The translations under genes and the position numbers were made by a program. The notes under the pieces are model-generated. The model made no database searches. It saw only the letters and a program-made list of their open reading frames with translations, and was not told where the DNA came from. A DNA stretch of 64,000 nt from Hygrocybe punicea (taxonomy: Eukaryota > Basidiomycota > Agaricomycetes > Agaricales > Hygrophoraceae), in the NCBI GenBank assembly GCA_963556145.1, contig OY744473.1, forward strand, positions 4,216,001 to 4,280,000, read 5' to 3'. Of this stretch, positions 1 through 61,639 are shown in pieces (the first letter of the stretch is position 1; each line of letters starts with the position of its first letter).

Positions 1-1773
1 CTCAAAGGCTTACCACTAAGATCTTACCATTCGCCTTTTTGAAGGTCCACCATCTGAATGAACACACCATGACGAGCGCACTGAGCTGCCACCACCCCTG
101 TAATCACAGCACCTTTGTATCTAGTCACATTCTGCATTTCAACGGCTTTGAGGCGTGTGCAGGTTGATTTCTAGGGAGTAATCACATCAGATCAATAACT
201 TTGATCATGACCAGAACACTCACATCAGGGGAATCGCCCACATTTGAAAGATAGGTAAGATACTCGGTGTTTTCAACAAAAATGCCATTGCCATTAGCCA
301 GAGCTACATTATCTGGGTCTTCCTTGGTTGTCTTTAGGCATATTGCTTTGAAGTTCCCATCAAGACTGATAGTCATCATGTATTTATGTCTGGTGTTTAC
401 ACGAGATCAGTTGCTCGCCAAAAAATTATACAACAGATAACTTACTTGTCCTTAGGCGATGCCAATGCCAAAGTTTGCTCATTGATGTTGACACCAACTT
501 TGGGGCATGCCGGACAACAAAAAGTGAGGGAGCCAGGGCGCCGAAGGGTGAGAATGGAGTCAATACCATGAGCCTGCCCTGAACGATGGATGGCTGCAAG
601 ATGGTGCCAAATACGGCTGACATAGATAAATTGACGGTAGTGATCCTGGTCAACAGTTAGCTTAGGATTCCACATGATTGGTCTCATATGTACTGGGCAG
701 TTGTGAGCAAAAAGATTGTTGGTATGTTTCCGAAGGGCCTGAAAATGATCGTATGCTGACTTTTTGGAGGCAAGGGTGTGGAAGTGGAAGTCGTTGAGCA
801 CAGAAAATGTGAAGACAGTTTCGGGCTGATCGATCGTGGCTGGGAAAAGTCCGCTGTGTGCCAATTGCAGTGGTTCACTCACTAAATTGCAGGAGCAATA
901 CACCATATGTTGAACATGGATTCCATTTGTGTGGATAATTGTCGTTCGACGGCCTTCAGTTGATGAAAGAGCGTTTGGGCAATGGCGAGTGCAATGGCCA
1001 AGAAAGAGTGCATGTCCAAGCTCACCCAGATCACACTTAATGAAATGCCCACCCACCCACTCCTGGACACAGTGAAATGGCTGTTGTTGATGCTCAGCAA
1101 GGAGACACGATTGGCAGCATGGTTCCAGATCAAAACATTCATGACAGTGGAAACGAGAGACGTCCAAGCTGCATGCACAATGTTTGCCAGTATGCGGGTC
1201 AGAACTGCATTCCAAAATAGCGTCCTGCAGCTCCTCGAGTCGGCCAGAGAATATCTTCATCATCATGGAGGCACCCTAAGAAAAATTTACTGAGTTTTTT
1301 ATTTCTAAGTGATAAGAGAAATGTACCTGTTTATGCTTCTTCTCATCCAGAGGAGATTGTGACACGATTGGTTGAGGGGTTGATGGAGCGACATGCGGAG
1401 CAGCATCCACTGGTGGAACAGCTTTGTGTCGCTTAGTATAACTTGAAAATGCCTCATACGACATGGTGGCACGCCCAGACAATCCATCAACACAAAATCC
1501 TGTTTCAAGCTCATCATCCGAGTCAGGATCTGCAGTCCCATGGACACCTCGCATATGTTTATTTGCTTGGATTCCAGGATGTATGTCCACTTTCAAGGCA
1601 GTAGAGTGAGAGGAATCACTGGTGGGCAACAGGTCAATGCCCTCATCAGAGTCGCTGTCGACCTTGCCGGTGGCGCCTGTGATGTTGCCTTGCCTGCATC
1701 GGTGGTTAAAAGTGTAGAGAGAGAGATGGGAGGGTATGGAAACTTTGGAGGACATTGTATTGCAGACAAGCAT
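1..1773 (-). CDS. KDZ-type transposase, N-terminal half, continues off the left edge
   Basis: The minus strand reads as one protein across at least four exons joined by short GT-AG introns (1276-1326, 390-445 and about 176-223), with a further donor at 27 leading off the window. The N-terminus (from about 1773) is acidic and Ser-rich. The next exon holds a cysteine/histidine cluster (CACS, CHEC, CCQSC, then LGH) typical of the CxC domain preceding KDZ transposases, and ends with CCPACP. The third exon contains SLDGNFKA and the fourth ECs such as QCARHG and DLQKGE, which are core KDZ signatures (first catalytic Asp in LDGNF). I see no stop or frameshift, so this copy could be intact. KDZ proteins are DDE-superfamily transposases of Kyakuja-Dileera-Zisupton DNA transposons. 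The element termini are not visible; the start could be at 1755 (MSSKV) rather than 1773. Confidence 0.85.
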
Positions 1774-8810: not shown

Positions 8811-9189
8811 CCCATACATTGCCAGCACTTAGCTTTGCCTCCTCACAGAGGCAAACCTGCTACATAGATACCCCAGCCTCCCCAGCCTCATTCATTCCAG
8901 TTTTGATGCCAGTATCCCCCCCATCCTCAGCACCTTCGCCCCCGCCAACAGCCCCACCATTGCTCTGCATTCCGCCAAGTTTGCAGCCATCATCACCAAG
9001 GAATATACCTGAGAACGACACTTCAGCCCTTTTACCCGCTGTAGTAGTGGGTAGTGCCCCACTACTACTAGTAGATCATGTGACTGTTCCCACGTTCTGT
9101 AGGATTACCTTTTGTGTAGATAGCTTATGAGACTTCAGCTTGTCACACCACCCGAGACCACTGAGGCACCCAGTAGGGACCCTAGTCCC

Positions 9190-10915
9190 TACTACACCAT
9201 GCTGAAGTTGAGGATCTCATTGGCCCTTTCCAGAGCTCCCCACTCTCCCTTACCCCAAAACCTGGCAACAAAGAGTCCTTTCGGATGGTACAAAACCTCT
9301 CCTTCCCCTCAAAACCCTCCAGCAACAGATCTTCAATCAACTCCGCAATCAACTCCGACCTATACCCGTGCACCTGGGGCACCTTCTCAACGATCTGCCT
9401 TCTTATCAGCCGCCTCCCTCCTGGCTCGCAGGCGGCAGTTCAGGATGTTGCGGAAGCACATTGGACCGTCCCAATCTCGCCCTCCCAATGGCCGGGCCTC
9501 ATTCTCCACCTTCCCGGCCCAGATGCCTTCAACATCAACACCTGCAGCTGCTTCAGCCTCTCCTCCTCCTCAGGAAACCACGGCAAACTGGGTGATGCAG
9601 GCGCTGACCTCATGCAGGCACGTGGGATCGGGCCTCTCTCAAAATGGAGTGATGACCACATATTCTTCCACATCTGCCTCGAACACATTGCCAAATACAA
9701 TGCCCACCACTTGGGCTGGAATGCAGCCATCATGCAAAATGGGGGCCGAATACACTCTGGTGGCCGTTACTGGTACTGCGGTGACACAATGCCTGACAAT
9801 TCCCCTGAAGAGTTTGATGAGGACACCTCTCTCCCCATCCAAGATCTCTCAGGTTCCTCCCCTCGTCTTACCTCCAACGTGGCCTTCTCATATTGCACGG
9901 CAGACATTGATGCCCTCTCGCAGGAGCTGGGCATCCCTTGGGAGACATCCAAGGACATCCCCTTTTGCTTGCAGGTCCCTTCATCGGCTTCACCTGGGAC
10001 CTGGATCTTCGGACGGTTGCCATTCCTCCCAAAAAGAAAGAGAAGTACCTGGCCGCAATCACTCAGTGGGAAATGGCACCCACCCATGTTCTCAATGACA
10101 TTCAAAAGCTCTTTGGCAAGCTTCTCCATGCCAGCCTTGTCGTTCCAATGGGACATGCTTACCTCTCCAGACTGGAGGCCATGCTGGGGATCTTCCACGA
10201 CAATCCTTTCAAACCATGCACCCCTCCCTGTGGCACTGCAGAAGATCTTCGCTGGTGGAAACACCTCCTATCCAAACCCGATGTCTCACACCCAATCCCC
10301 ACCCCCATTCCTGTTATCGACTCCAGCTTGTTCTCTGATGCAAGCTCCAGTTTTGGCATTGCAGTCACAATTGGGCCACTCTGGCATGCCTGGCGCCTCC
10401 TCCCAGGATGGCAGCGTGACAACAGGGACATTGGATGGGCAGAAGCAGTTGGGTTTGAATTCTTGGTCCACTATGCTATCGCCCACAATCCTCCAGGCTC
10501 TCACCTCAAGGTCTTTGGGGACAACAATGGAGTCGTCCAGGGCTGGTGGAGAGGCTGGAGCTGCAACTCCCAGATCAACAATGTCTTCAAGAGGATCCAC
10601 ACCCTCACGGCCCCCTCCTCCTATGTCATCCACACAAGATTTGTCCCCAGCGAACACAACCCAGCCGACGGCCCATCTAGAGGCATATGCCCCCCTCTCT
10701 CCCTCCTACTTCCCCCCATCGAAATCCCTGCTGACCTCTCTCACTTCATCGTCAACTTTGACTCCCGTGTTCCAGGATCTGAGCCCTGCTCTCCTGTCCA
10801 CCCTGCTCCAGCACCCCCCAAGACAAAACCATGTCAGGATGCCACTGCCCTCCCCGACTGCTACATCCCCTTCACACTCAAACAGCAGGCAATGGACTGG
10901 AGCAACAGCGGGTAG
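9190..10915 (+). pseudogene. Reverse transcriptase-RNase H of DIRS-like element 1 (one frameshift)
   Basis: RT blocks are readable in one frame from about 9190: EVEDLIGPF, INSAINSDLYPCTWG, RLPPGSQAAVQDV, NTCSCFSLSSSSG and the catalytic WSDDHIFF (paired Asp). At about 9980 the homologous reading moves to another frame, where FIGFTWDLD begins the thumb and RNase H part, ending at 10915. RNase H acidic residues are present in SDASSSFG, WAEAVGFE, FGDNNGVVQG and NPADGPSR. A single missing T in the run between the two frames would explain the shift; a programmed shift is possible but less likely. The original RT frame stays open through the RNase H region and runs into the recombinase. Confidence 0.8.
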
Positions 10916-11029
10916 GCCAGCAAAGGCCCTGGCATGGAACTCCCCCCTGCCCTTCCAAGGTCCCTGTCCCCATGCCCCCGCCCCCTACCACCAGGGCCTA
11001 GCACCCTCTCTGTCCCTCCTCCACCCCCA

Positions 11030-12125
11030 CTGCCTTGCTCAGGACCGCCTCCGGATCTGGTGCCCCCTGCAGGCTCGCACCACCCTAGATGAACAAGGGA
11101 TCCCAACAAACCTGTCACCAGAGGATCTCACGCGCATCACGGATGTACTTGAACACACCTGGGCGGAGAACACACGGGAGACCTATGGTACTGGTCTCCA
11201 CCTCTTTCATATCTTCTGTGACAAAAAGAACCTTCTGGAATCCCAACGGGCCCCGGCCAGCAGTGTCGTGCTGTCCGCCTTCACTGCCACCCTCACAGGC
11301 TCCTATGCTGCCAAGTCCATTGGCAACTACCTTTACGGGGTCCAGGCTTGGCATATCATCCATGGCATCCCTTGGCACCCAAACAACCTCAAGACGCAAG
11401 GTATCCTGAAGGCCACTAATGCCCTCCACCTGGCCTCATCCAAAAGGAAACCCCATCTCCCCTTCACCGTCAACTACATCGTGGCGCTTCGGTCCCAGCT
11501 CCACCTATCGGCCCCCCTCAATGCTGCCATCTTCGGCTGCCTCACCACAACCTTCTACTCAGCAGCCTGCCTTGGCGAGTTCACAGTAAAAAACCTGAAG
11601 CCAGGGACCTTTCACAGCTCAACCCATGTCACGCCAGCCCACGTCACCTCAGTCCGTGACTGCAACAACCTGGAAATGACCTCCTTCCACCTCCCCCACA
11701 CGAAAACCTCCTCCTCTGGGGAAGATGTTTCCTGGGCAAGACAACTTGGCAGCTCAGACCCCGAAGCAGCCCTGAATAATCACCTCCAGTTAAACCAACC
11801 CCCTGCAGATGGCCCTCTCTTCGCTTACCGCCATGGCAAGGGCTTCCAAGCCCTCACCAAATCCAAAATGTTGGAGTGCCTAGCCAAGGCCGCATGCAGG
11901 TTGAACGTAGACCCCCTCCAAGGCCACGGCATCCGCATAGGCTCGACTTTGGAATACCTTCTTCGAGGCATCCCCTTTGAGGTCATGAAGGTCAAGGGGT
12001 GCTGGGCCAGCGACTCATTCCTCCTATACCTAAGAAAATACACACAGATCATGGCCCCCTACATGCAAGCCGTCCCTGCCCTGCATGATAGCATCATCCG
12101 TCTCACTATGCCTCCAGTCTGTTAA
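11030..12125 (+). CDS. Tyrosine recombinase of DIRS-like element 1
   Basis: This is the C-terminal part of a continuous 946-codon frame (9285-12125). The recombinase begins with AQDRLRIW, a SAM-like N-terminal domain (AENTRETYGTGLHLFHIFCD, NYLYGVQAWHIIHG), then the catalytic domain. GHGIRIGSTLEYLLRG holds the HxxR motif, and SFLLYLRKY supplies the presumed nucleophilic Tyr. The first catalytic Arg is expected in an ARxGEF block, but here the sequence is ACLGEF (TGC), so a CGC-to-TGC change probably inactivated it. The protein would circularise or integrate the cDNA. It ends at TAA 12123-12125 after MPPVC. Confidence 0.82.
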
Positions 12126-30114: not shown

Positions 30115-30396
30115 CCTCAGAGAAAGAAATTTGGATATATTGCATCCATCTAAGTACTTAGGAGGCGAAATTTTCCCCTGTCACCCATCATGACCGTTTG
30201 TGGCAAATTGGCAGATTCACCTTTCATGTCATGCATCACATGGCCTGGTGAATTGACCGGATTGGTACAGTATTTACTTCAACTAGACACAATCCTAATA
30301 CACACCTAAGAATTCCACAAAAAGTTAACATGAGCAAAATCCAAAGTATTTTGAACTCTTAAAAATCAGACCAATTTACTTCCCACAATCATGTTA
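30115..30396. other. Inner part of the right inverted repeat
   Basis: About 30240-30396 is the reverse complement of 26010-26180, including CCGGATTGGTAC and GACCAATTTACTTCCC. No gene. Confidence 0.6.
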
Positions 30397-31161
30397 CAGC
30401 CATTTTCTTAATTCTTGACACTTTTTGAATTTTTTAACTGTTTAGGCAAATGATGACTTAGAAAATTTTACCATGTGAAGTTATGTATCTTGTGAAATAC
30501 TGAATGGATTTGAATGGTTATATAGGCAAAATTTATCTATTTCATAAGGGCTTTTCAGCTGTACCATCATATCCAAGAAATACTAAGTGTGTGCAGAGAT
30601 ATAGATGACATAAGATGGAATAGCTACTGAACCTTATGTGAAGTGTAACTTGACGAATACAGCACCAATTTAAGAGATTGTAAGGAATGAAATGTTCCGT
30701 TTTTCAAGGAGAATACACTCCAATACCGGGATTTTTGATAAACTCAGATTTTTACTTGATAATTGTAATATTCTAGTTTTATGGGAATATTACAATTATC
30801 AAGTAAAAATCTGAGTTTATCAAAAATCCCGGTATTGGAGTGTATTCTCCTTGAAAAACGGAACATTTCATTCCTTACAATCTCTTAAATTGGTGCTGTA
30901 TTCGTCAAGTTACACTTCACATAAGGTTCAGTAGCTATTCCATCTTATGTCATCTATATCTCTGCACACACTTAGTATTTCTTGGATATGATGGTACAGC
31001 TGAAAAGCCCTTATGAAATAGATAAATTTTGCCTATATAACCATTCAAATCCATTCAGTATTTCACAAGATACATAACTTCACATGGTAAATTTTTCTAA
31101 GTCATCATTTTCTTAAACAGTTAAAAAATTCAAAAAGTGTCAAGAATTAAGAAAACGGCTG
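30397..31161. mobile_element. 765-bp near-perfect palindromic MITE, Tc1/mariner-type target
   Basis: Arms 30397-30771 and 30785-31161 (about 375 bp each) are almost exact reverse complements around a 13-base loop. Ends read CAGCC(A/G)TTTTC. TA dinucleotides flank both ends (30395-30396, 31162-31163), and the flanking sequence rejoins to match the intact left arm of the host element. Confidence 0.88.
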
Positions 31162-31342
31162 TAATCTGAGCTCTTGTTGTGTCATTATTCACCATGCTGA
31201 TGAAATATTGGTATTTCATCTGTAACTGTCTTAGTACTAATCATTTTTAGGATATAATTACATGAGCAGCTAGCTCTGATTGAATAGATAGGTTTTCCTT
31301 CTACAACCATCCAAATCTATTCAGTATGTCATGAGATAACAC

Positions 31343-32523: not shown

Positions 32524-33242
32524 GCGCTTTTCAAAACTAATGACATTTCAAAAAACAAATTTGTTACTGTAAGTTTGGGGACCTAAGCAAATATTGTAAC
32601 TCATGAAATACTGCACAGATTTACATGATTGTAGGATGAAGTTTCATCCAAATTTCAAGGGCTAGCCACTCCTGTATTTAAATTTAGGAAATATTCAGAT
32701 TATTGATAGTTACAGGTGCATTTCTGCATTTCAGTGGCTAATACTTGTACAATGAATAACTTTACAAGGAATGCTCAGATTTACAAGATTGTAGGGAGAA
32801 AACCATTCCATTTTTGAAGGGCTAGAAGCTCACATACTGGCATTTTGTATACTTTTGGGCATTAAGACCATATTTATCCCAACAAGGCACATACTTATTA
32901 CTTGAGAAAAACCTCAAATTAAGCAAAATGCCAGTATGTGAGCTTCTAGCCCTTCAAAAATGGAATGGTTTTCTTTCTACAATCTTGTAAATCTGAGCAT
33001 TCCTTGTAAAGTTATTCATTGTACAAGTATTAGTCACTGAAATGCAGAAATGCACCTGTAACTATCAATAATCTGAATATTTCCTAAATTTAAATACAGG
33101 AGTGGCTAGCCCTTGAAATTTGGATGAAACTTCATCCTACAATCATGTAAATCTGTGCAGTATTTCATGAGTTACAATATTTGCTTAGGTCCCCAAACTT
33201 AACAAATTTGTTTTTTGAAATGTCATTAGTTTTGAAAAGCGC
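32524..33242. mobile_element. 719-bp foldback element
   Basis: Arms of about 325 bp run from GCGCTTTTCAAAACTAATGA at 32524 and its reverse complement ending at 33242, with a ~65-bp centre near 32890. No ORF. Target duplication not resolved. Confidence 0.85.
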
Positions 33243-33373: not shown

Positions 33374-36138
33374 TCAGCCCTTCTCTTTGGCCTCAGGAAC
33401 CATGTTAGAATCATCAGACTTTGATTGCCCAGCTCGTTTCGAGTCCCGTTTGCGAAACATTCCTTTCAAATTGACGATGAGCCGCTCCAGCCATCGGAAA
33501 AGAACAGAAGAAGCTCCCGTCTGCGATAGTTCCTTTCCCTGGACGACCAACTCCACTTGCAGCTTGAGAGGCTGCCGATTATCAAACTGGAACATATCAA
33601 TGATTTTCCAAGCTGACTTGTGCGAGGAATCGAAACGAGCCATCCGGCATCCACGAGACAGCATTGGCTGCCAGAAATTTGTACGCAGCTGATTCTCGCG
33701 CCTTAGCCCAGCCTCTTCAGTGACATCATCCCACAGGGTCGTTGTAAGGATGACGTTTTGAAGCGCATTCACACCACACAACTCCTGGAACATTGCAAAA
33801 TTATTCTGGGGAGTTCCGCGCATTCGGCTTTCCGAGATAGAGTGGAAGAGGAGGATGCCCGTCAAGGTAATGCGCTGTTTATAGCTGGATCAGGCGACGT
33901 ATCAATACTTCGTCACGTTGCCTCTTGAGAGATAGTATTTACGTTGTTTTTAACCATTCAGCGATGGCTTTGAGGGTGTGATAATCCGTCCTCTCGCTGT
34001 CGTCAAAGCCAGGAGTGTCGACGAATACGATACTGCGACCACGATCATCAGGGTGAGAACAGCGAACGGCGTGAACGTCTTGGGTGCACGAATCTAAGTC
34101 GTGGCCGACGGCAGTGGAGTGTTTGCCCGTCGCTATATTGATGAACTGCTCCCATGGGCCTTGTCTAAGCATGCATTTTGTCAAGGGTCGGGATTGCACT
34201 CACAGAACTTTTGCCGGTCCCAGTAGGACCCAGTAAGCTAGGAAAGTAGCCTCAGAAAGATTGACAAATTCCTAAACATGCCAACCTACATGATTATGAT
34301 GTCCTGTCCATTAATTGGGCAGTCATCTTTGCTGTGAGAGCTGTTGCGGATGAAAGCGCCTAGCTTTGAGGCAACCGACGCTGCTGTCGGTCTGCTAGCT
34401 GGTTCTTGAAGCCAGCAATCTTCAATCAGGTTCCACAACTCGTCGTTAAGGCCACGGTCGATAATAGTCTGTTCTTGGGGTTTAGGAAGACGTATTCCGA
34501 AATCCACTACCGCGTTGCGCAACGATGTCCAAGAACTGACATTTTCAAATGGGGCGTCTCCAGTAAACATCTGGGGGAGAAATATGTCAAGTGAGATGGC
34601 GAAAGTAATAACGAAGCAAACCTCGCAGATCGTTACGCCAAAACTGTAAATGTCAGACTTCTCATTGGTGATTCCACGTTTCATTTGCTCCGGCGACATG
34701 TACTGCAGAGTGCCAGCGGCAGGCGGTTCATTATTCGGGTATACTGACGATGATAATACGGTCTGGTATGTACGTATTCTTGATAGTCCGAAATCACATA
34801 AGCAGGCCATGCCGTTTCCATCAACAAGTATGTTCGACTAACCTCATAGCATCAGTGCAATTCTTAGCCGGGAAACAAGTTGTTTACCGGTTTGAGATCG
34901 CCATGTATGACGCCGCTTTTGTGAAGATAGACCAATCCCAAACTAGCATCATGGGACTATATTCCAAAGATGATCAGAGAAACAACAGGAGGAATAGTCC
35001 GAGTCAAACTCACAAGTTTACGACGGTCTGCATCTGGATTCTGCGAAAGAAAGTTGTTCACATCCCCACCGGGCTTGAAAGCGCAGACCAAGAATGGTCC
35101 TCCAGGATTCTGACATGCTCCGAAGATTTGAAGGACATTATCATGTTGGAGTCGTTTCAGGATGTTGATCTCGTTGTCAATAAGCTAGGCCGGCGTGAAA
35201 AGTTGTTTGAAGGAAATGGCGTGCTTCAGCTCACCGCCTGAGGGACCTTAAGGAGTACTTTGACAGCAACTTTAACACCTTGCCAGCGGCCTTCAAACAC
35301 TTCACCACAACCCCCCCTTCCCAGCATTTTGCAACGATTGACGATAATATGAAATGGACTTATCATAAAGCCATCAGAAGGCGAAACTAGACGTCGACGT
35401 TGCAAGGCATGCTGGCATGCATCGAGAAACTGGCGTTCATTGCCATTGTCGCTGGGCTTCTTGATACGCTTGCATCGACCATCAGAACGAACAGAGCAAG
35501 TTGTTTCTAGGAATGATACCTGACGGATAGCTAATTCGGCTTGAGAAAACTGAATACTTGGCACACCGAGTATCTGAAGAGTGCAACGATGCATGTCCAG
35601 AACGTGCCGTGAACGTTAGATGACCCACCTTAAGGATGTCTTGCTCGTCCTGCAGGCCTTGGATCCTTTCGTGAAAGTGAACTGTGTCAAGCCTCCGTGC
35701 CGCCTTGCTCTCTGTTTGAAATCGTTGGAGATCTAACGAAATTGCTTTCGGGAACTCCTGGTAAACCGATGAGATGATATTGCTAATATCATCTCTCCAA
35801 AGAATGTTCTTCAGTGGTGGCCGCTCGCCAATGTCAACCAGGATGTTGTTCAAGTCCGTCAGAGCCCTGCAATTTGCGCAGCCCCGTGCTCGTCACTCAG
35901 TAGCGGGAATCAGCAGGCGAGGTGGTGAAGCGGACGCAACTCACTCCGACAACCTCTGCAGTTCATCCAACAATTCCAGTGGATGGTCCCTCTCCTCAAT
36001 CGATGTAGTGACAACCTCGACGTGATCCAGAAGCTGAGAACATTCCTGGCTGTTGTGTTTCACTTGGACCGTAGACTTTTGAAGACTTTCGACGGCTTTA
36101 GCAAGCTGGGTCGAGGGCTTCATGTCGTCTGATGGCAT
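33374..36138 (-). CDS. MLKL-NTD-like helical region + protein kinase + AIG1-like GTPase fusion
   Basis: Ten minus-strand exons join in frame: (36138)-35945, 35866-35629, 35573-35235, 35184-35014, 34956-34888, 34837-34622, 34570-34290, 34237-34204, 34145-33943, 33884-33374. The N-terminus (KHNSQECSQLLDHVEVV, then further helices) resembles MLKL_NTD/HeLo-like four-helix bundles. The kinase shows GRGGCGEV, VAVKVL, HGDLKPSNILV, DFG, MSPEQ and SRPTA, so catalytic Lys and both Asp are present. The kinase runs directly into GPTGTGKSS (P-loop, on a 34-bp exon), then VDTPGFDD and TTLWDD, where the usual TKxD Lys is Leu. No stop is met. The start is uncertain: 36138 is the first in-frame ATG, but an exon using part of 36272-36586 could precede it. 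Expected role: membrane-acting or death-type signalling regulated by nucleotide and phosphorylation (inference). Confidence 0.8.
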
Positions 36139-36926
36139 GGTTTGGTGACTCGTTCCCAAATCCAAAGGGGTACTCTGACTCTAGGGTATGAGGAGCGCCG
36201 ACCTGTAATACGAGGGAACCGCGTGTACTGCCCGTATCCTCGCCTTTCATTTCCTCACTGTCAAGGTTTGATCATGGCATGGACCTCCTAGAGGGATCAG
36301 TCACAATCTGGTTTCGCCCACTGCGGTTGGCCAGGTGGTCTCCTCGTGCAACATATTCATGACCTATCACAGTAAAACCAGGTTGGATCCGCACGCAAGA
36401 TGAAACCGCCCTCAATCCGAGACGTCGAACGAGTCCGAATATTCCCGAACCAGCGTTACTGAGAGTGAATTTTCGGTAAGCAGACACGGAGATCTGCATG
36501 GTGACGATGTTGGAAACGTTTCCTACACCTTTGTCGAAGCTGCGCAGCTCGATGCCGTTAAAAAACGATTCCGTGGGGGCATTCACGTCCTCGATTCAAT
36601 TGCATTATGGCTCCCAGTCACAAGGATACATACGTGAAGGCCTTCTCCACCCTTCAGTTAGGACTTCCAATGTATGAACCCTGTGTCGTATGGAAACCGA
36701 GACTGACCTGCTCAAAAACCGTGACACAATGTGTGATAGCCGAAGGTGATAGTGTATGGACCCCGTGTACTTTTTCTTTATCAATGTACATAATGTCTAT
36801 TACTACATTCACAAGTCTCTTTTTGTAGTTGCAAGGTCATGATTCTAATATACATGGTGAAATTCTCAAAAGCATTGTGAGTAGTTTAACTACATTGGCG
36901 CATAAGTTTATATGTGCTACTTTTAA

Positions 36927-37147
36927 CACTGCAAATATGAAGGGATTTGTAAATTTGACATAATCCAATAATTGTTAAGAAAGTTGGCAAACTCCAAAAA
37001 TTCATTCCAAATAAAGCAATGATTGCCATTTATAAAAATAAAGGGTTCAATATTTTATGAATTTGTTGAGTATCTTACAAATTATTAATATGTTTATAGA
37101 TTATTTTAGCATATGTCAAATTTACAAATCCCTTGATGTTTGCAGTG
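36927..37147. mobile_element. 221-bp MITE nested in the left arm of copy 1
   Basis: Ends CACTGCAAA are inverted and flanked by TAA on both sides (36924-36926, 37148-37150), a 3-bp duplication like PIF/Harbinger elements. The flanks rejoin to match the right arm of the host element. Present at the same place in copy 2 (46950-47170). Confidence 0.8.
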
Positions 37148-37359
37148 TAAGTAATTAGGATATGATAAAAGAATGAGGAAAGGGCCAGAAGGCACAGGAA
37201 TGGCTAAGAAAGGGTTGGAAGGGGCAGGAAAGGTTATGGAGGGTGCAAGAGGGAGTCAGGGAGGTTTAGAGGGGCCAGGGAGGGCCAAAGTGCAGGGAAG
37301 GGCAGGGGCAGGCTCAGGTGAGCTCAGGGGGAGGCCATGCAAGGGTGTGAGAGGCCAGG

Positions 37360-37638
37360 TAGTGTATTGCATGGGTATGGGTAAACCTGCAGGTTTTGCC
37401 ACACGTATAGCCTCAGGTACAGGCACAGGCACAGATTCTTGGACCCACCAGCTCTTTTTGAAGCCCTGGATCATCCACAATGGTCAAGTATTGAGCTAGA
37501 TATGCTTAAAATACTTTATTCTTGTATTTTAAGCATATCCAGGGCTTAAAATGACAGGTGAACCTGCAGGTATTGTACCAACAGGTGCAGGTATGGGTAC
37601 AGCTAAAAATACCTGGGGGTTACCCATGCAATACACTA
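37360..37638. mobile_element. 279-bp hAT-like MITE nested in copy 1
   Basis: Inverted ends TAGTGTATTGCATGGGTA. Flanks AGGCCAGG and AGGACAGA match at six of eight positions, compatible with an old 8-bp duplication. Rich in ACCTGCAGGT oligomers. It contains the hairpin TATGCTTAAAATAC near 37501-37540. Present in copy 2 at 47383-47661. Confidence 0.7.
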
Positions 37639-40600
37639 AGGACAGAGGGGTTGTGAGATGTTCAGGGGGTTGGATGGCGCAGGGAAGCACTGGTGCTGCA
37701 GTTCTGGTGCCTCTTTGTTACCCTCATTGCCATCACCTTGAAAGCACATTTGATGTGTTCTGTATTCATGAGGTAATCTTGAGCGGTATCTGGGGGGGAG
37801 GTGAGAGATCTATGTTGAAGAAAAATAAAATGTACCTGGGTTGGAGTGCAGGCACACCACACCTCCAACCTTTTTGCCATTGTACTGTAACTGTCGTTGG
37901 TGTGGTCACCATTGCAGTCATTGTGGTTGTGGTTGTGGTTTGGTTGTGGTCATGGCAGTTGCAGTCATCACCCTCAATGCCTGTTTGGTTTGGTTTGCAC
38001 TGCTTTCTTCTTGGTGGTTGTGACCTGTTACCATCATCATAAGGGTGTGGTGTGGCAGTGGGTGGCCAGTTGGTGACCCTGACCTGCACCTGTGGAACCC
38101 GTTATGTAATTACCAAGTCGTTGTGATGGCAAGTGTCAGTGTAGACCTGGATAGGAATCTACAGTAAGGGTGACTAGCTAGAAAGTGATCTGAGGAGTCT
38201 TAGGTCTTGTATAGGTTGTCGTAATTAATCCAACCAAGATCTGGGGGTTCTGGAACAGAGGGGAAATGTAGGGGGAAGATGAAGAGGAATATGGGAGATA
38301 CAATGAGGGTACTAAATGGTAGATCTGAAGTGTGGTAATAAGCTATATTTTGTAGTGTAAAAGCACAACTTCTATACTACTAGAGAGAATCTTGTGCTGT
38401 ATACTATAAGCAAAGGAAGTAACTGATAGTGGTGAAGTGAGGAGGTAGATAGGAGAAGAGACCTATGTACTGAGAGATGGGAAATGAAGATATGTGATGT
38501 ACAAGCATATATATACTGATTCTAAGTCATTAGGAACATCACATCATGGGTAGGAACAATTTCAGAGGTGGAATCCAGAGTGGAATCGGTGGAAAGGAGT
38601 GGAATCAATGATATTGGAGTGGAAGTGGATGGGAACAATGTGGGACATGAAGAGGATATGATTCCAGACAGTCCAGAGCCTCTACATCATGATAAATGCT
38701 AGAAAGGGTGGGGAGACACCAATGTGTTGGCAACCTGCAGGTGACCCACACACCACCCCATACCTATGCAAGGGTACACCCATTGCACCCAACCCCTCAC
38801 TGACCTGCAGGTCATTCAGGTGTCAGCATACCCATGATAGTCCTTGTGAGGGAGGGTGCAAGGGGTATGGGAGTGCATGGGAAGGGTGTGTGTGAGGACA
38901 CAAGGCATAGAGAAGGGAAGGGCAGGGTAGGGTAGTGGAGTTGCAAACAATCTGTGGGGAGCTCATTAGTTACTGAGGCTGCAAAAACAGGTGTGAAAGG
39001 TAAACTTGCAGCTTGCACTTTCATAATACTTCTCATGAATAATGAATGGTCAGGTCCATTGTGAACGACAGCTGATTTGAGGGGTGGGGAAAGTATAGCT
39101 GTAAAGTGTATGAGCAAGGCATACATTCCAGGAAAGAAGTGCAGGAGGTGTTGGAAAGCATAATGTACAAGTAGTGGAGGTTGAAACTGGTGAGAAAGTG
39201 GCATAGGACAATGAAATCCAGACTGTCAAATTGTCAAATGTGGAACACACTGTGATGTGACTTGTTGCCCTCTTCAAGTGGTTCTCCTCACTCTTGACAA
39301 TACTCTCCTCATGATCATCACATCATGTGATGTGGATGTGTAAGGCAAACAGTGGAGGGATAGAGTAATGTGTGCATAATAGTATTTGCTGACAAACATC
39401 CTGCACCACTCCAGTCACCCATCCCAACTCACCTGAGCCCACCTCCTGCTCTTCCCTACACTCTGGCCTCCTCCAGGTCCTCCCTGTCCTCCCCTGAGCC
39501 CTCTAAACCTCCCCAAGTCCTCTCACACTCTCCTGCACCTTTCACACCCTAACCAAGTTCTTCTTAACCTCCCTGACTCCCTCTTACACCCTCCCATAAC
39601 CTTTCCTGCCCCTTACAACCCTTTCTTAGCCATTCCTGTGCCTTCTGGCCCTTTCCCCATTCTTTCATCATATCCCAATTACTGAAAAGTAGCACATCCA
39701 TAAACTTATGTGCCAATGCAGTTAAACTATTCACAATGCTCTTGAGAATTTCACCATGTATATTAGAATCATGACCTTGCAACTACAAAAAGAGACTTGT
39801 GAATGTAGTAATAGACATTATGTACATTGATAAAGAAAAAGTACACGGGGTCCATACACTATCACCTTCGGCTATCACACATTGTGTCACGGTTTTTGAG
39901 CAGGTCAGTCCCGGTTTCCATAGTGTCGAAGCACACCTTGGCGACGTCGGCTTTGTTGCCGCAAACGATGGCGTCTTTCAGAAACTCTACAATGTCAGCA
40001 ATCCCCCTACCGATAGGCCAGGCTGTCCTCCTCCTTTCGAGCTTGTGAAGGGTGTGCCTCGGAAGGAGCACCTGGACGCGATCCATGTCAATTATTTTGT
40101 GTTCTCCTTTGCCCTGAAAGCTCTGATCCCTTCAATTCTTATAGTTAACAACGCGTACGGCCCAGGGAGCCACTGGCCGGGTAAACATGTTAGCCCACAG
40201 GGGAATGGGTTTGTGCCGCAATTCACTCATACACTTGTTTGTCAGTCCGCTCGGCCCAACTGGAGCTACTTCCGCACTGGAGTTTGAATTCGCACATGTC
40301 CGTGGTCGGGAATGCATCTTAATTCCTGGGACATTTATTGTGAAAGACCGTCTAGAAGAACTTGGTGGACTCAAAGAGTACATGAACAACCACCATCGAT
40401 GGATAGAAAAAGAATATGCTAAAAGGTCATGAATTTCACGATACAAATGCCATCTATCTTCCTCACGTGTTTCAACAGGCACAATTTCAAGTTGAAACAG
40501 GTCATACTCGTTGTGGGCACTCTGAAGACCGACCGGTGGGCGATCGCGGTCACTTCTGAAAACGAAGTCGTCGAGCAGTTGTCGTTCAATATTTCATCGG

Positions 40601-41148: not shown

Positions 41149-42216
41149 TTAAAGATGGAAGAATAACTTGACTCTGGTGCCGAAAGAGACTTTCAGCTGT
41201 TCGATCTGATCGGAGGTCGAGCGAACTTGTCTGCTGACATCTTCGTATCTCTCCCGCAAATTTTCATCTGTCTGCGATCCCTCTTTCAGTTGTGCGGCAA
41301 TTTCTTCCTGCTCCTTGAGTAGCTCTTGCAATGCGTTACGCAGGGCGCTGCCTGCTTTGGTCGTGGGAATGCGTTTCTGATCGTCGACCAGTTCGCGTTG
41401 AATTAGGAGGGAACCGATCGAATTCCCCTGGAGAATGCAATTGACGATTTCACGAGCAGATTCCGATGAATTCATGAATCGAATCATCTTTGAACCTTTG
41501 CTAATCATGTTCCTCCAATGTGTTTCGGCGAGTTGTCGCTCGCGGCGGTGTCCCACAGCTTCCGCAATATCGTCCCACTTCGTAGTTGCGAGAAGTATAT
41601 TCTTACCCGCTTTGTCGCCGCACAGTCTGTTGAACATCACAAAGTTTCTACGGGCAGTCCCAAGCATGCGAGTTTGAGTTATCTCATGCAAATAGATGAC
41701 CCCCGCAAGTTTCACATCGTCGTTGTACCTTTCATGCGATGAGCAAAAAATAATGGATTGCGGCGTAAGATTCTCACGAATGCGAGAGCCAAACAGCAAT
41801 GCGCCTCAAGATCTCTGTATCGGGCATGTAGGTGTCATCGAAGCCAGGGGTATCAAGGAGGATGATGCGACGGTCTTCGTGTGGTATAAAAACAGGTTGA
41901 AGCTGTGACGTGCAAGATTCAAGATCATGGCTGACGCGTGCAACGGGACTTCCAGCGACATGGTTGATAAACTATTTGCTATGTTTTTAGCCGTTGAGAA
42001 TCGTTGAGTATAAACTATGCTCCTACGGTACTTTTCCCGACCCCGGTTGGACCCATTACGCTAGGGATTCGATTAGAGGCAGAAGCTCTATAACGACGAT
42101 GAAACCTACGGAATGATAACATCGGTGTCTCTTGGGTCTTCGATTCTCGCGATGTTATCGCTCTGCTTAGCGTCCTTCAATATTTTTCGAAATCGTTTCG
42201 CCTTTGTGTTGGGCAT
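41149..42216 (-). CDS. AIG1-like GTPase 2
   Basis: Four exons: 42216-42110, 42060-42027, 41971-41778, 41728-41149, about 305 residues. The start MPNTKAKRFRK is followed by RDTDVI. P-loop GPTGVGKST lies on a 34-bp exon. DTPGFDD gives the G3 motif and ATTKWDD the TKxD-like G4. VIYLHEITQTRMLG is a family block, and the C-terminus is a charged coiled coil (LQELLKEQEEIAAQLKEG). All nucleotide-binding motifs are intact. The family is the fungal AIG1/septin-like P-loop group (TRAFAC GTPases), often multicopy; in plants and animals AIG1/GIMAP proteins act in defence or lymphocyte survival. It is an inverted paralogue of the gene at 43976, similar even in introns. Confidence 0.85.
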
Positions 42217-42603
42217 TACAGATCGAGAGGATTTGCGTGTAGGGAAGACTCTGGAAAATGCAAGTAGGGCATTCAAGTAGGGCACTGCTGGTCGCTAACC
42301 GGTAACCTCGTGCTTGACAAGATGCCTACAGGAGGCCACACTCAGAGCAAGTTGCGGATGCGAATGTCCATCTGTGCCCGGAATCATGGTAAGTGAACGT
42401 GAACCCCCGGACAATATTATTATAATGTTGATGCTCGGACTCGGAGATCATGGTCAGAAGTGCTGCAGGTGCGTTGTACAGCTGTGCAGTTGGACGGTCA
42501 CTTGGACCAGGCAGTGGCCATGATGCATGGTGCTTTACGGGTCTCCTACGTACTGTAAAAGCTCCACCTCCTGCCTCAACAACTCTCTATCTTCCTTTTC
42601 GCG

Positions 42604-43556
42604 ATGCCCGCTCGCAAGAACAGACAAACGAACAATCACCCCCAAGATTATGAAGATATCAAAGTGCTAGATCCTAAGGCAACTGACATAGTCATTCCGT
42701 ACGTTCCCTACCCCAGTTTCAGGGAATGGCTCCTCACCGTCTTTCTCAGCATCCTCGGCGCAACTGGGGCCGGAAAAAGCACAGTGAACCTTTTTCCATC
42801 CTGAATCTCTTAACTGCTCAACGCTCAGGCTTTATAATAATAGTTCATAAACACTGCTGCTGGGGAATATGCTACAGATGTCAACCATGACTTGGACTCT
42901 CGCACGAAAACAATTCGACCCGTCATCCTCCCTTGCCCTGGTGACCCCCAACGTCGTCTCATCTTTGTCGATACCCCCGGCTTCAATGACACATGGGTTG
43001 AAAATAAAAAGATATTGAGGCGTATTGTGGAATGGCTAGAAGACTCGTGAGTATGTTGTGCTGAACACTTGCCATACATTCATCTTTTGAGTTTAGATGC
43101 GAATCGGGCATGGCAGTTGCTGGAGTAATCTATCTGCACGAGATAACGCAAGCTCGCGTAAAAAAAGATGATGAACTCGATATGTTTCGACGTTTATGTC
43201 TTGGCGTTTCTGGTTCAAAGCACGTCGTTCTCGCTACGACAAAGTGGGGGCAGCCAGCGAAGGCCGCCGAGAAGCGACGCGAGGATCAACTTTCTGGAAA
43301 GTTTTTGGACGGACCAGGTGTAGTTCGATTCTTGCATACGCACGAATCTGCTTGGGCCATCATCAACCCTATTATCGAGAAACCTCCACTTGACACCACG
43401 CAATTTCTGGTCGCCCTGCGCAAACTTCAGGGGAATCTCACGAAGACCAAACCTAGCACTCCTTGGAAAAGCATTGTATCCCTTTTCCGACAATATTTCC
43501 TGGTGAGTTTTCTTCAAACATGCTACGTCGATATCGCTCACCCCGGCTTGCAGTAA
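42604..43556 (+). CDS. AIG1-like GTPase 3
   Basis: Exons 42604-42698, 42750-42783 (34 bp, P-loop GATGAGKST), 42844-43046 and 43097-43556. The start MPARKNRQTNN gives a similar N-terminal spacing (DPKATDIVIP). G3 is DTPGFND. The family block reads VIYLHEITQARVKK. The G4 position is TTKWG, where paralogues have TTKWD, so base recognition may be altered. A GTGAGT donor and CAG acceptor just before the TAA could remove the last ~17 codons and give a C-terminus ending RQYFL. No coiled-coil tail is present, unlike GTPases 2 and 4. It is divergent from its two neighbours. Confidence 0.8.
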
Positions 43557-43975
43557 CATCCGGAGATCTCGTCGACGTTATCTATGTTAAAATATGCCTG
43601 GGGCGGTTATCTAAGACATGCGAATGATGAATGAAGTTCGAGTATACATCTATATTCATTGCATTTCGAATTCTACTTATTTGGGAAATTTGTGTGAGTG
43701 TTTTGTTGTTCAAGGCGTTTTGCTGTGCAACGTGACATTCATCCTTCATGTAGTGTCATGAATGCCGCATGGGAACGGAACGTCTGTCCTCGTGTACTCA
43801 GAATTTGCGGGAACCTACTCCGCTTAGTAGCCTCATGTCTTACGAGATGACTACAGGAGGCCATACGCACACGAAGTAGTTGCATGCCCCTTCTTGCTTC
43901 AGACGCAAATCCCCATACCTGCACGACTCAAATCCCCATACCTGCACACGCAAATCCTCCCAACCTCCAATCCCT

Positions 43976-45049
43976 ATGCCGAAGGTAGGAAACGGTAAGG
44001 CGAAGCAGTCTCGGAAATTGAAGGACGCCAAGCAAAGCGACAACATTACGAGAATAAAAGACCCAAGAGACACCGATATTATCATTCCGTAGGTTCCACC
44101 GTCGCATTAGAGATTCGGCCTCTAATCGAATTCCTAGCATCATGGGTCCAACCGGAGTCGGGAAAAGCACCGTAGGAGCATAGTTTATACTCAACGGTTC
44201 GCAACGGCTAAAGCATAGCAAATAGTTTATCAACCATATTGCCGGGAGTCCTGTTACACGCATCAGCCATGATCTTGAATCTTGCACGACAGAACTTCAA
44301 CCTGTTTGTATACAACACGAAGACCGTCGCATCATTCTCGTTGACACTCCTGGTTTCGATGGCACGCGGATTCCTGACACAGAGGTCTTGAGGCGCATTG
44401 CTGTCTGGCTGGCACATTCGTGAGCTGGTGCTTTCGAACCTCTATTCATCGATAGTCATTCTACGATAGGTATAACGATGGCACGAAGCTTGCCGGAGTC
44501 ATCTATTTGCACGAGATAGCCCAAACTCGCTTACTTGGGGCAGGGCGTCGGAACTTTACCATGTTCAACAGATTGTGTGGCGACGACGCAACTAAGAATA
44601 TAATTCTCGCAACTACGAAGTGGAGCGATGTTGCGGAGGCCGTGGGACGGCGCCGCGAGCAACAGCTATCCAAAACCCACTGGAAAAATATGCTCGATCA
44701 AGGATCAAGGGTCGTCCGGTTCATGAATTCGCCTGAATCTGCTCGGGAAATCATCAATTGCATTCTCAGCCGAAATGCTGTTGGTTCCCTCCTAATTCAA
44801 TGCGAACTGGTCGATGGTCAGAAACGCGTACCCACGACTGAAGCGGGCAGCTCGTTGCGCAACGCGTTACAAGAGTTGCTCAGGGAGCAAAAGGAAGTTG
44901 CTGCACAACTGAAAGAGGAGTCACAGACAGATGAAAACTCGCGAGAGAGATACGAAGATGCCAGGAACCGATTACATTTGACGCTCGGTCAGATCCAAGA
45001 GCTGAAAATTCCTCTTCGCACGCGAATCAAGTCGTTTTTTTCGCTATAG
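43976..45049 (+). CDS. AIG1-like GTPase 4
   Basis: Exons 43976-44088, 44138-44171 (34 bp), 44226-44419 and 44470-45049, with no stops. Start MPKVGNGKAKQSRKLKDAK. P-loop GPTGVGKST, G3 DTPGFDG, G4 ATTKWSD, block VIYLHEIAQTRLLG, and a coiled-coil C-terminus (LQELLREQKEVAAQLKEE). It is nearly the same gene as 41149-42216 in opposite orientation. Intron sequences (GTAGGAGCATAGTTTATACT) and part of the upstream region (CTACAGGAGGCCA) are shared, so the pair arose by an inverted duplication. Confidence 0.85.
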
Positions 45050-60038: not shown

Positions 60039-61639
60039 CCGGCACGATCAAAATCTGGCAGAACATATACGAAGAGCAGCTCAAACGGACTCACCAACAA
60101 ATGGAAAATATCGCCGTCCCAAGTTTTAACAATCAACTTACCAATGCTCGTATACGTGGTGCAAAAGTCATGCGTATCAGGGATGTAAACCCATTTCTTT
60201 GACTCGACAACATCCAACTAGGTTACGGATTATTTCACAAATGTCTTAACCTGGTTTGGGCTGTCGTGAAGATCCACCAAGGCACCGTTGATCAGCTGGG
60301 GAGCCTCAAGTATTTTTTTGCCCTACTCGAGAAGACCTGCTTAGCAGGAGATAAGTCGGATTATCATACCCTTCTCTCAGCTCTTATTCAAATACTCAAT
60401 GGTATCATTCTCCAAGCATGGCGTGAAGAGTGTGGCTTCGCCACCTTCAAACTCTTCGCCACTTCCAATCCAACTCCGGACAAGCTTCTCTCTATTGCGC
60501 TACAAATTATTTCAAAGTATGCTACTCCTATGGATGAGCGACTCCAGCCTAAGCAAACGAGGAAAAATACCAAAGCATCAAATCAAGCCCATGAGAGCTG
60601 TGACAATGACTTAGACTCTACCGCTTCGGACAACGGGGATGTTTTACCCACCCCAATACCCCTAGATGATCTGCAACAAGACCGCGCCCACCGTAATATT
60701 TGCCTCCTCACACAGGATCTTCTCTATGTCGCGGAACTCATCAAGTCTATCTCAGATGGTGACTGGGGCCGCATCGAAGATATCCTCGGTCAATTGACCA
60801 TGATGTTCCGTGGAGCTGGGTCAAACAACTATAGCACGGAGCTCCTCCATTTTATTCGCAACCTCAAACTCGTTTGGGGTGATGACTTCGGGTAATTTGT
60901 CTTCAACTTTGATATTAATAATTACAATGGCTATATTTTTAGGAACATTATGCGTGACTGTATGCTCGTTAATCCGTCCGGCCTTGGGGGTCATTGGATG
61001 GGCATAGATATGAACATCGAGCACCTTATTGGATATCTCAAGGTATGACATCCATCTTTTGCTCGCATGTTCCGCGGCTAACAAACAATGGAAACCAAGT
61101 TTTTATTCTCTTCGAAAGGGCTGCGCGCAAGTTGGGAGCATCTTGGAAACATTTCTGCTGCTATTGACTATCTTCAGAGAATCAAGAAACAGGTTGGCCT
61201 CGCTTTGGGCAGCTACCAAGGTCGAACCCACACAAAACCTGATGTGTCAGACCTTGTATGGAAGGTAGCCAACAACGTGCGAGAATTTGAGCTCCTTAAA
61301 TTCAAGCTGGACCGCCAGAATCACCCAAACAAACTTGCAAAATCCGTCCTCAACATTCTTGACGAAGGGGAGAAGAAACTCAAATCATCCTCGCTCAAGA
61401 CTTTTAACAACAAGATTCGGGCCCTTCTGCATGGGCGATCAGTCGATGAGGAAGGGCAGTCAATTTTTGAGGAACAGGATGACATAGCACCGGCTGATTT
61501 TGAAGCATTGCTGGTAAACGACGAGGACAATTAAGGAGTTCCAGTTCCATTTCACTCAGACTGTACAGTAAACATTGTGAATGCGAACAAAAATCAAATG
61601 TGAAAACAATGTGAATGACAACAATGCGAATACTTTAAC

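What the first reader, a model, noticed from the sequence alone, without database searches (positions are those of the whole stretch)
33374..36138. One gene joins an MLKL-NTD-like bundle, an intact-looking kinase and an AIG1-like GTPase
In-frame splicing across ten exons puts a HeLo/MLKL-NTD-like helical N-terminus, a kinase with GRGGCGEV, VAVK, HGDLKPSN and DFG, and a GTPase with GPTGTGKSS and DTPG in one protein. Fungal HeLo/MLKL-like domains are known cell-death effectors, kinases can gate them, and AIG1-type GTPases are defence-associated in other kingdoms. A single polypeptide with all three would be an unusual sensor-switch-effector. The domain names are pattern-based and the immunity role is inference.
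Basis: partly seen in the sequence, partly recalled or inferred. Interest (0 to 1): 0.8.

Follow-up and report, generated by a model that had tools for sequence, protein, structure and literature searches.

The report
MLKL-like bundle, kinase and GTPase fused
A mushroom-type fungal gene encodes one protein that joins a relative of the membrane-attacking domain of the necroptosis protein MLKL to a kinase with intact catalytic motifs and to a septin/AIG1-like GTPase, so it may be a one-molecule self-destruct switch, though that role is untested.

Summary
A minus-strand gene (36138–33374) with GT–AG introns encodes an MLKL-like helical N-terminus, a kinase with intact motifs and an AIG1/septin-like GTPase. 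Correction: homologues and a paralogue support an extra 51-nt in-frame intron (35519–35469): 11 exons, 734 aa. One exon (34570–34290) encodes the kinase end and the first GTPase strand, so the two are one frame. All seven front introns match a paralogue elsewhere (MLKL-like + kinase + Sel1); all three GTPase introns match three stand-alone GTPases in the window. The MLKL link is indirect: Pfam MLKL_N misses this protein, but a profile of it and four relatives finds MLKL in the PDB (5e-8), and it scores 84.7 bits against relatives (best of 1,000 shuffles: 10.1). Kinase–GTPase fusions occur in six other mushroom genera, with another kinase clade and no MLKL-like front detected. Trees and AU tests show a chimera: an MLKL-type kinase front joined to a "kinase-fused"-lineage GTPase. 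No other protein with this order was among the 146 returned. Cell death and immunity remain inference; helix 1 is less hydrophobic than in relatives, and 7–8 residues near helix 4 are missing.

The parts
33374..36138 (-). Whole gene, ATG 36138 to stop 33374; best model 11 exons, 734 aa: 36138-35945, 35866-35629, 35573-35520, 35468-35235, 35184-35014, 34956-34888, 34837-34622, 34570-34290, 34237-34204, 34145-33943, 33884-33374
   Evidence: Open frame after removal of GT..AG introns; intron positions and phases shared with homologues
35394..36138 (-). MLKL-like N-terminal helical region, aa 1-187 (bundle plus brace-like helices)
   Evidence: Profile A2, of which it is one of five rows, hits MLKL chains at 4.7e-8 to 1.4e-6; target scores 84.7 bits against an HMM of relatives without it, best of 1000 shuffles 10.1; Pfam MLKL_N hits 3 of 5 rows but not the target row
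35469..35519 (-). 51-nt in-frame intron missed by the ten-exon model
   Evidence: About 17 residues absent in four homologues; same position and phase as an intron of the C39 paralogue
34361..35333 (-). Protein kinase domain, about aa 208-462 of 734; VAVK lysine, alpha-C glutamate, HGD aspartate, asparagine and DFG all present
   Evidence: Pfam PF00069 / PF07714 E 2e-43; these columns invariant in the five rows of alignment A1
34290..34570 (-). Junction exon: kinase C-lobe, short linker and first GTPase strand (DIIII) in one uninterrupted exon
   Evidence: Continuous reading frame
33377..34307 (-). AIG1/septin-like GTPase domain and C-terminal tail, aa 480-734; P-loop GPTGTGKSS at 34230-34204; DTPG; G4 position TLWD
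   Evidence: Pfam AIG1 35.1 bits and MMR_HSR1 35.2 bits; 51-64% identical to the GTPases of the 15 kinase-fused proteins, best P0122
33449..33520 (-). C-terminal cationic amphipathic stretch, about aa 687-710
   Evidence: Hydrophobic moment up to 1.84, charge +4, in aa 693-710; no shuffled control was run; membrane contact is inference

Best explanation
It is one intact gene of a mushroom-type fungus made of two halves with different histories. The front half is an MLKL-like helical bundle plus a tyrosine-kinase-like kinase whose catalytic motifs are all present, a module that in relatives carries other C-termini (Sel1 repeat, WD40). The back half is an AIG1/septin-like GTPase from the lineage found fused to other kinases in mushrooms. 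Likely mechanism: GTP-dependent pairing of the GTPase brings two kinases together, they phosphorylate each other and/or the brace between kinase and bundle, and the bundle is released to oligomerise and act on membranes. It would work like RIPK3 and MLKL in one chain, with a GTPase as trigger. Shown: the gene, its domains, motifs and mosaic origin. Inferred: GTPase pairing, trans-phosphorylation, bundle release, membrane action, and any role in self/non-self recognition or defence.
For: Gene model and motifs. 7 of 7 front introns shared with the C39 paralogue, and 3 of 3 GTPase introns identical in position and phase with three stand-alone GTPases. MLKL link by profile. Kinase in a clade with P0001, P0002 and the C39 paralogue (97/96*), apart from 14 other fusion kinases (100/99*). 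GTPase inside the kinase-fused clade (100/99*). AU tests reject grouping the kinase with the 14 fusion kinases (p 0.001) and the GTPase with its nearest own-genome relative (p 0.002) or with all 15 own-genome rows (p 1.3e-6) (the groups were named after the trees were seen). A related GTPase in Pleurotus djamor (P0135) carries an MLKL-like bundle at its C-terminus (20.3 bits, best of 2000 shuffles 10.0). Fungal HeLo/MLKL-like bundles are known or proposed cell-death domains (passages of PMC10197012, PMC9815663, PMC12881547).
Against: No expression or functional data. Pfam MLKL_N does not hit the target itself, and its matches to P0001, P0002 and P0011 are all below the curated cut-off. Searching the N-terminus alone gave 0 hits at E 0.001 among 1099 candidates. 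Helix 1 is not hydrophobic (best 18-residue mean -0.10, versus 0.85 to 1.68 in four fungal relatives and 0.56 in the N-terminally partial P0004; MLKL as printed is -0.00). 7-8 residues are missing near helix 4 where the paralogue has an intron. The G4 motif is TLWD rather than TKxD. Predicted structures of relatives were low-confidence at the N-terminus, and the 50 Foldseek matches listed for each were kinases only.
Confidence: 0.42

Rival explanations
1. An ordinary signalling kinase: the bundle is only a docking or autoinhibitory module, and the GTPase tunes kinase activity or location; nothing is killed.
For: Catalytic motifs intact; helix 1 poorly hydrophobic and 7-8 residues missing near helix 4; kinase-GTPase fusions without a detectable MLKL-like front are common (15 of 26; 0 of 15 with the bundle, though 9 of the 15 models start in or just before the kinase); TKL kinases are greatly expanded in the mushroom Laccaria (passages of PMC2838846).
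Against: The bundle-kinase order is that of MLKL and is kept in relatives from Phlebia, Neolentinus, Piloderma, Mycena and Cyclocybe; related bundles are cell-death domains in the cited literature; MLKL's own helix 1 is no more hydrophobic by this measure.
Confidence: 0.38
2. Not one gene: a kinase gene and a neighbouring GTPase gene were joined by the reader's splicing.
For: Stand-alone GTPase genes lie 5-9 kb away in the window; no RNA data.
Against: Kinase C-lobe and GTPase strand 1 share one uninterrupted exon (34570-34290); annotated kinase-GTPase fusions in six other genera; the target GTPase groups with kinase-fused GTPases, not with the local ones.
Confidence: 0.03
3. A decaying or TE-disturbed gene, open by chance, with no function.
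For: Transposon-rich surroundings: an inverted-repeat element starts 551 bp upstream of the ATG and long hairpins lie just downstream; longer end branch than its kinase relatives (0.75 versus 0.40-0.61).
Against: No stop or frame break in 734 codons, ten introns with GT..AG ends, kinase and G1/G3 motifs intact.
Confidence: 0.1
4. The N-terminus is a generic coiled coil and the MLKL resemblance is chance.
For: No direct Pfam MLKL_N hit; weak sub-threshold hits to other helical families such as Med9.
Against: 84.7 bits against the relatives' profile versus 10.1 for the best of 1000 shuffles; the first seven of 19 PDB sequences found by the profile are all MLKL, the next match is at 0.013.
Confidence: 0.07

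Closest known systems
MLKL and RIPK3 (animal necroptosis)
   Same: Helical bundle, brace-like helices, then a kinase fold; the profile aligns with MLKL from helix 1 into the brace region
   Different: Kinase motifs intact, whereas MLKL is a pseudokinase; fused C-terminal GTPase; a RHIM was not searched for
Basidiomycete MLKL-like domains (BaMLKL) of fungal NLRs, PMC9815663 (passages read)
   Same: MLKL-like bundle in Basidiomycota
   Different: Those described in the passages sit on NLRs or alone; here the partner is a kinase and a GTPase, with no NACHT or NB-ARC hit
Kinase-GTPase fusion proteins of Leucogyrophana, Hygrophoropsis, Suillus, Hypsizygus, Cyathus and Mycena
   Same: GTPase of the same clade (100/99*), kinase before GTPase
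   Different: Kinase of another clade for the 14 placed in the tree (AU p 0.001); no MLKL-like front detected (0 of 15; 9 of 15 models start in or just before the kinase)
C39 paralogue of the same genome (L038:4722-8632)
   Same: MLKL-like front, same kinase clade, all seven front introns of the target
   Different: C-terminus is a long linker plus a Sel1 repeat, no GTPase
MLKL-like region + kinase + WD40 proteins, P0004 Piloderma and P0006 Cyclocybe
   Same: Bundle-kinase module
   Different: WD40 instead of GTPase; P0006 also has an acetyltransferase domain in front
AIG1/GIMAP and septin-like GTPases
   Same: AIG1 Pfam above cut-off; P-loop and DTPG
   Different: G4 reads TLWD; fused to a kinase

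Membership tests
MLKL family | N-terminal four-helix bundle of MLKL type | tested here: met
   By sequence profile of relatives; direct Pfam MLKL_N hit absent; the model of relative P0001 is all-helical there but low-confidence, so the fold itself is not shown
MLKL family | C-terminal kinase fold that is catalytically dead (pseudokinase) | tested here: not met
   Lysine, glutamate, HGD, asparagine and DFG all present
MLKL family | Bundle permeabilises membranes on release | not testable with these tools
   Needs expression; helix 1 hydrophobicity low (-0.10)
Basidiomycete MLKL-like (BaMLKL) domains | Additional N-terminal helix before helix 1 (PMC9815663, passage) | not tested
   No confident structure of the N-terminus was obtained
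AIG1 / GIMAP GTPases | AIG1 profile above the curated cut-off with intact P-loop and DxxG | tested here: met
   35.1 bits versus 27; GPTGTGKSS, DTPG
AIG1 / GIMAP GTPases | G4 specificity motif TKxD | tested here: not met
   TLWD here; TKWD in neighbour G1, TKWS in G3, TKWG in G2; TMWD in 12 of the 15 other fusions, read by eye. Motif definition recalled
Agaricomycete kinase-GTPase fusions (unnamed) | GTPase in the kinase-fused clade | tested here: met
   100/99*
Agaricomycete kinase-GTPase fusions (unnamed) | Kinase in the same clade as the other fusions | tested here: not met
   AU p 0.001, 14 of the 15 fusions in the tree
Fungal NLR | NACHT or NB-ARC domain | tested here: not met
   No such Pfam match in the 751-aa scan

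The most novel reading that the evidence does not exclude
Mushroom fungi hold an NLR-independent class of kinase-centred death receptors: an MLKL-type bundle joined to a catalytically competent kinase ('RIPK3 and MLKL in one chain') with exchangeable C-terminal input modules (GTPase here, Sel1 in the paralogue, WD40 in others). In this member a self-pairing GTPase replaces the NLR or necrosome as trigger.
Probability: 0.22. Interest if true: 0.8.

Novelty: new variant of a known kind. Interest (0 to 1): 0.55.

Why it matters
In animals the kinase that activates the necroptosis executioner is a separate protein and the executioner's kinase domain is dead. Here an MLKL-like bundle sits on a kinase with intact motifs, with a GTPase at the other end, and a paralogue in the same genome has a Sel1 repeat in that place. 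If functional, it gives a single-gene system in which trigger, kinase and executioner can be tested by point mutations, and a lead on how basidiomycetes, whose somatic incompatibility is poorly understood (start of the abstract of PMC8229728, seen in the listing), might run regulated cell death without NLRs.

Tried and rejected
Search with the N-terminus alone: 1099 candidates, none at E 0.001, so homology had to be shown through longer relatives. PDB phmmer of the N-terminus alone: 0 hits at E 1. AlphaFold of relatives P0001 (4 sequences, mean pLDDT 52) and P0122 (15 sequences, 65) was too uncertain at the N-terminus; the 50 Foldseek matches listed for each (of 1962 and 1994) were kinases (MLKL pseudokinase domains are among those of P0122), so no structural support for the bundle is claimed. 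The target itself was not folded because a spliced protein is not letter-for-letter in the DNA. The idea that the GTPase came from this genome's own GTPase clusters was rejected by trees and AU tests. The idea of a widespread family of three-domain proteins was not supported: 0 of 15 other fusions carry the bundle, but 9 of those 15 models begin in or just before the kinase. Literature searches listed no paper on this combination; only listings and passages were read, and the library lacks most subscription journals. Whether this genome also holds a P0122-type kinase-GTPase fusion did not complete (searches failed).

Full report
WHAT IS THERE. The window is part of an unnamed 92.2 Mb genome in 42 contigs (G000, contig C41). 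Short introns and the closest fungal proteins (Phlebia, Neolentinus, Leucogyrophana) point to a mushroom-forming fungus; the species was not identified. On the minus strand, 36138 to 33374, removal of nine GT..AG introns of 50-78 nt gives one frame of 751 aa. Pfam finds a kinase (1.8e-43), AIG1 (35.1 bits, cut-off 27) and MMR_HSR1 (35.2 bits, cut-off 21.9), and nothing above cut-off for the first 209 residues.

ONE CORRECTION. In an alignment with P0001 (Phlebia), P0002 (Neolentinus), P0004 (Piloderma) and P0011 (Mycena), this protein alone carries about 17 extra residues. They correspond to a 51-nt in-frame GT..AG stretch at 35519-35469. A paralogue on contig C39 (L038:4722-8632) has an intron at exactly that position and phase. 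The better model is 11 exons and 734 aa.

IT IS ONE GENE. All seven introns of the bundle-plus-kinase part coincide in position and phase with introns of the C39 paralogue, which has one more in this part. All three introns of the GTPase part coincide with those of each of three stand-alone GTPase genes in this window: G1 42216-41149 (-), G2 42604-43556 (+), G3 43976-45049 (+). The exon 34570-34290 encodes both the end of the kinase and the first GTPase strand without interruption. Annotated kinase-GTPase fusions exist elsewhere: 15 of the 26 proteins found with the GTPase region carry kinase domains by their precomputed Pfam, from Leucogyrophana, Hygrophoropsis, Suillus, Hypsizygus, Cyathus and Mycena; the 10 of these 15 that I scanned all confirmed it.

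THE N-TERMINUS. MLKL_N of Pfam is missed by the target but is hit, below its cut-off of 27 bits, by relatives: P0001 25.8, P0002 19.2, P0011 17.3 bits; of the five N-termini of alignment A2 scanned alone, three match at E 1 or better, best 5.4e-7. A profile of A2 (target plus P0001, P0002, P0004, P0011) finds MLKL as the first seven of 19 PDB sequences, E 4.7e-8 to 1.4e-6, the best match running into the brace region; the next match is at 0.013. An HMM of these four relatives and the C39 paralogue, without the target, gives the target 84.7 bits; the best of 1000 shuffles gives 10.1. So the bundle is MLKL-like by descent. Results against a working effector: its helix 1 has a best 18-residue mean hydrophobicity of -0.10, against 0.85 to 1.68 in four fungal relatives and 0.56 in the N-terminally partial P0004, although MLKL as printed reaches only -0.00; and the target lacks 7-8 residues around the place where the paralogue has an intron near helix 4. 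The whole-database search with the N-terminus alone found nothing at E 0.001, and models of relatives were too uncertain to help.

KINASE AND GTPASE. The glycine loop, VAVK lysine, alpha-C glutamate, HGD aspartate, asparagine and DFG are all present, unlike in MLKL, a pseudokinase. The GTPase has GPTGTGKSS and DTPG; its G4 position reads TLWD, against TKWD, TKWS and TKWG in neighbours G1, G3 and G2 and TMWD in 12 of the 15 other fusions (read by eye). A cationic amphipathic stretch lies near the C-terminus.

A CHIMERA OF TWO HISTORIES. In a tree of 25 kinases (23 of the 146 returned proteins, the paralogue and the target), the target groups with P0001, P0002 and the C39 paralogue (97/96*), apart from 14 kinases of the other fusions (100/99*; the 15th, P0125, was left out as a kinase fragment). 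In a tree of 47 GTPases, the target lies inside the clade of kinase-fused GTPases (18 rows: 15 fusions, 2 others, the target; 100/99*), at its base (89/86, not starred). AU tests reject a joint clade of the target kinase with the 14 fusion kinases (p 0.001), of its GTPase with one near own-genome GTPase (p 0.002) and with all 15 own-genome rows (p 1.3e-6); the groups were named after the trees had been seen, and long branches are present. Either the same GTPase lineage was fused twice to different kinases, or an older fusion had its front half replaced by a bundle-kinase module. In this genome the kinase search with the target's kinase (61 matches at E 1e-5; 141 of 201 candidates scored) and the GTPase search (25 matches) gave neighbouring matches only at the target; these are exon-wise lower bounds, and a search with a P0122-type fusion did not complete.

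EXCHANGEABLE PARTNERS. The C39 paralogue ends in a Sel1 repeat (49.0 bits). P0004 and P0006 end in WD40 repeats. P0135 of Pleurotus djamor has a related GTPase followed by an MLKL-like bundle (20.3 bits, best of 2000 shuffles 10.0). Of 148 sequences scanned at E 1 with the six-row N-terminal profile (146 returned proteins, target, paralogue), the hits were the six training rows, P0006 and P0135; 0 of 15 kinase-GTPase fusions had it, but 9 of those 15 models begin in or just before the kinase. The 146 are what was listed: one search listed 120 of 2937 and scored 7992 candidates. PMC8778642 (passages) reports MLKL homologues with Sel1 repeats in Glomeromycotina, so bundle plus Sel1 is not itself new.

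LIKELY MECHANISM. The best-supported idea is nucleotide-dependent pairing of GTPase domains, trans-phosphorylation by the paired kinases, release of the bundle and membrane action. Only the parts are shown; every step is inference from MLKL/RIPK3 and from septin-like GTPases (the latter recalled). Literature context: HeLo/HELL bundles related to MLKL include a death effector of fungal allorecognition (passages of PMC10197012 and PMC12881547); MLKL-like bundles are common on basidiomycete NLRs (passages of PMC9815663); an AIG1 G-protein gene is upregulated when two Rhizophagus isolates share a root (passages of PMC7490403; read there as a putative mating response). A plain signalling kinase with a regulatory bundle is nearly as likely.

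VERDICT. Real, correctly read apart from one missed small intron; a new domain combination of known modules, with a surprising mosaic history. Function is untested.

Noticed in passing
window 41149-45049: Three stand-alone AIG1/septin-like GTPase genes (G1 minus, G2 and G3 plus); G1 and G3 are close relatives in inverted orientation. Another cluster of at least six lies at G000:C1:2378541-2387782.
   Followed up: partly
window 36689-39922: Inverted-repeat element (223-nt arms, 98% complementary) whose flanks share a 6-bp direct repeat GTGTCG (read by eye), inserted 551 bp upstream of the gene's ATG.
   Followed up: partly
window 32570-33201 and 30389-31169: Two long near-perfect hairpins (286- and 385-nt arms, 98% complementary) just downstream of the gene; possible foldback elements or small-RNA sources.
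   Followed up: no
window 445-1275 and 60203-60892: CxC2 cluster associated with KDZ transposases, and a DUF6589 domain.
   Followed up: no
window 9186-12122: 979-aa open frame on the plus strand without any Pfam match at E 0.001.
   Followed up: no
P0143 (Mycena galericulata): Annotated lipoxygenase with a related GTPase domain at its N-terminus, another unusual GTPase fusion.
   Followed up: no
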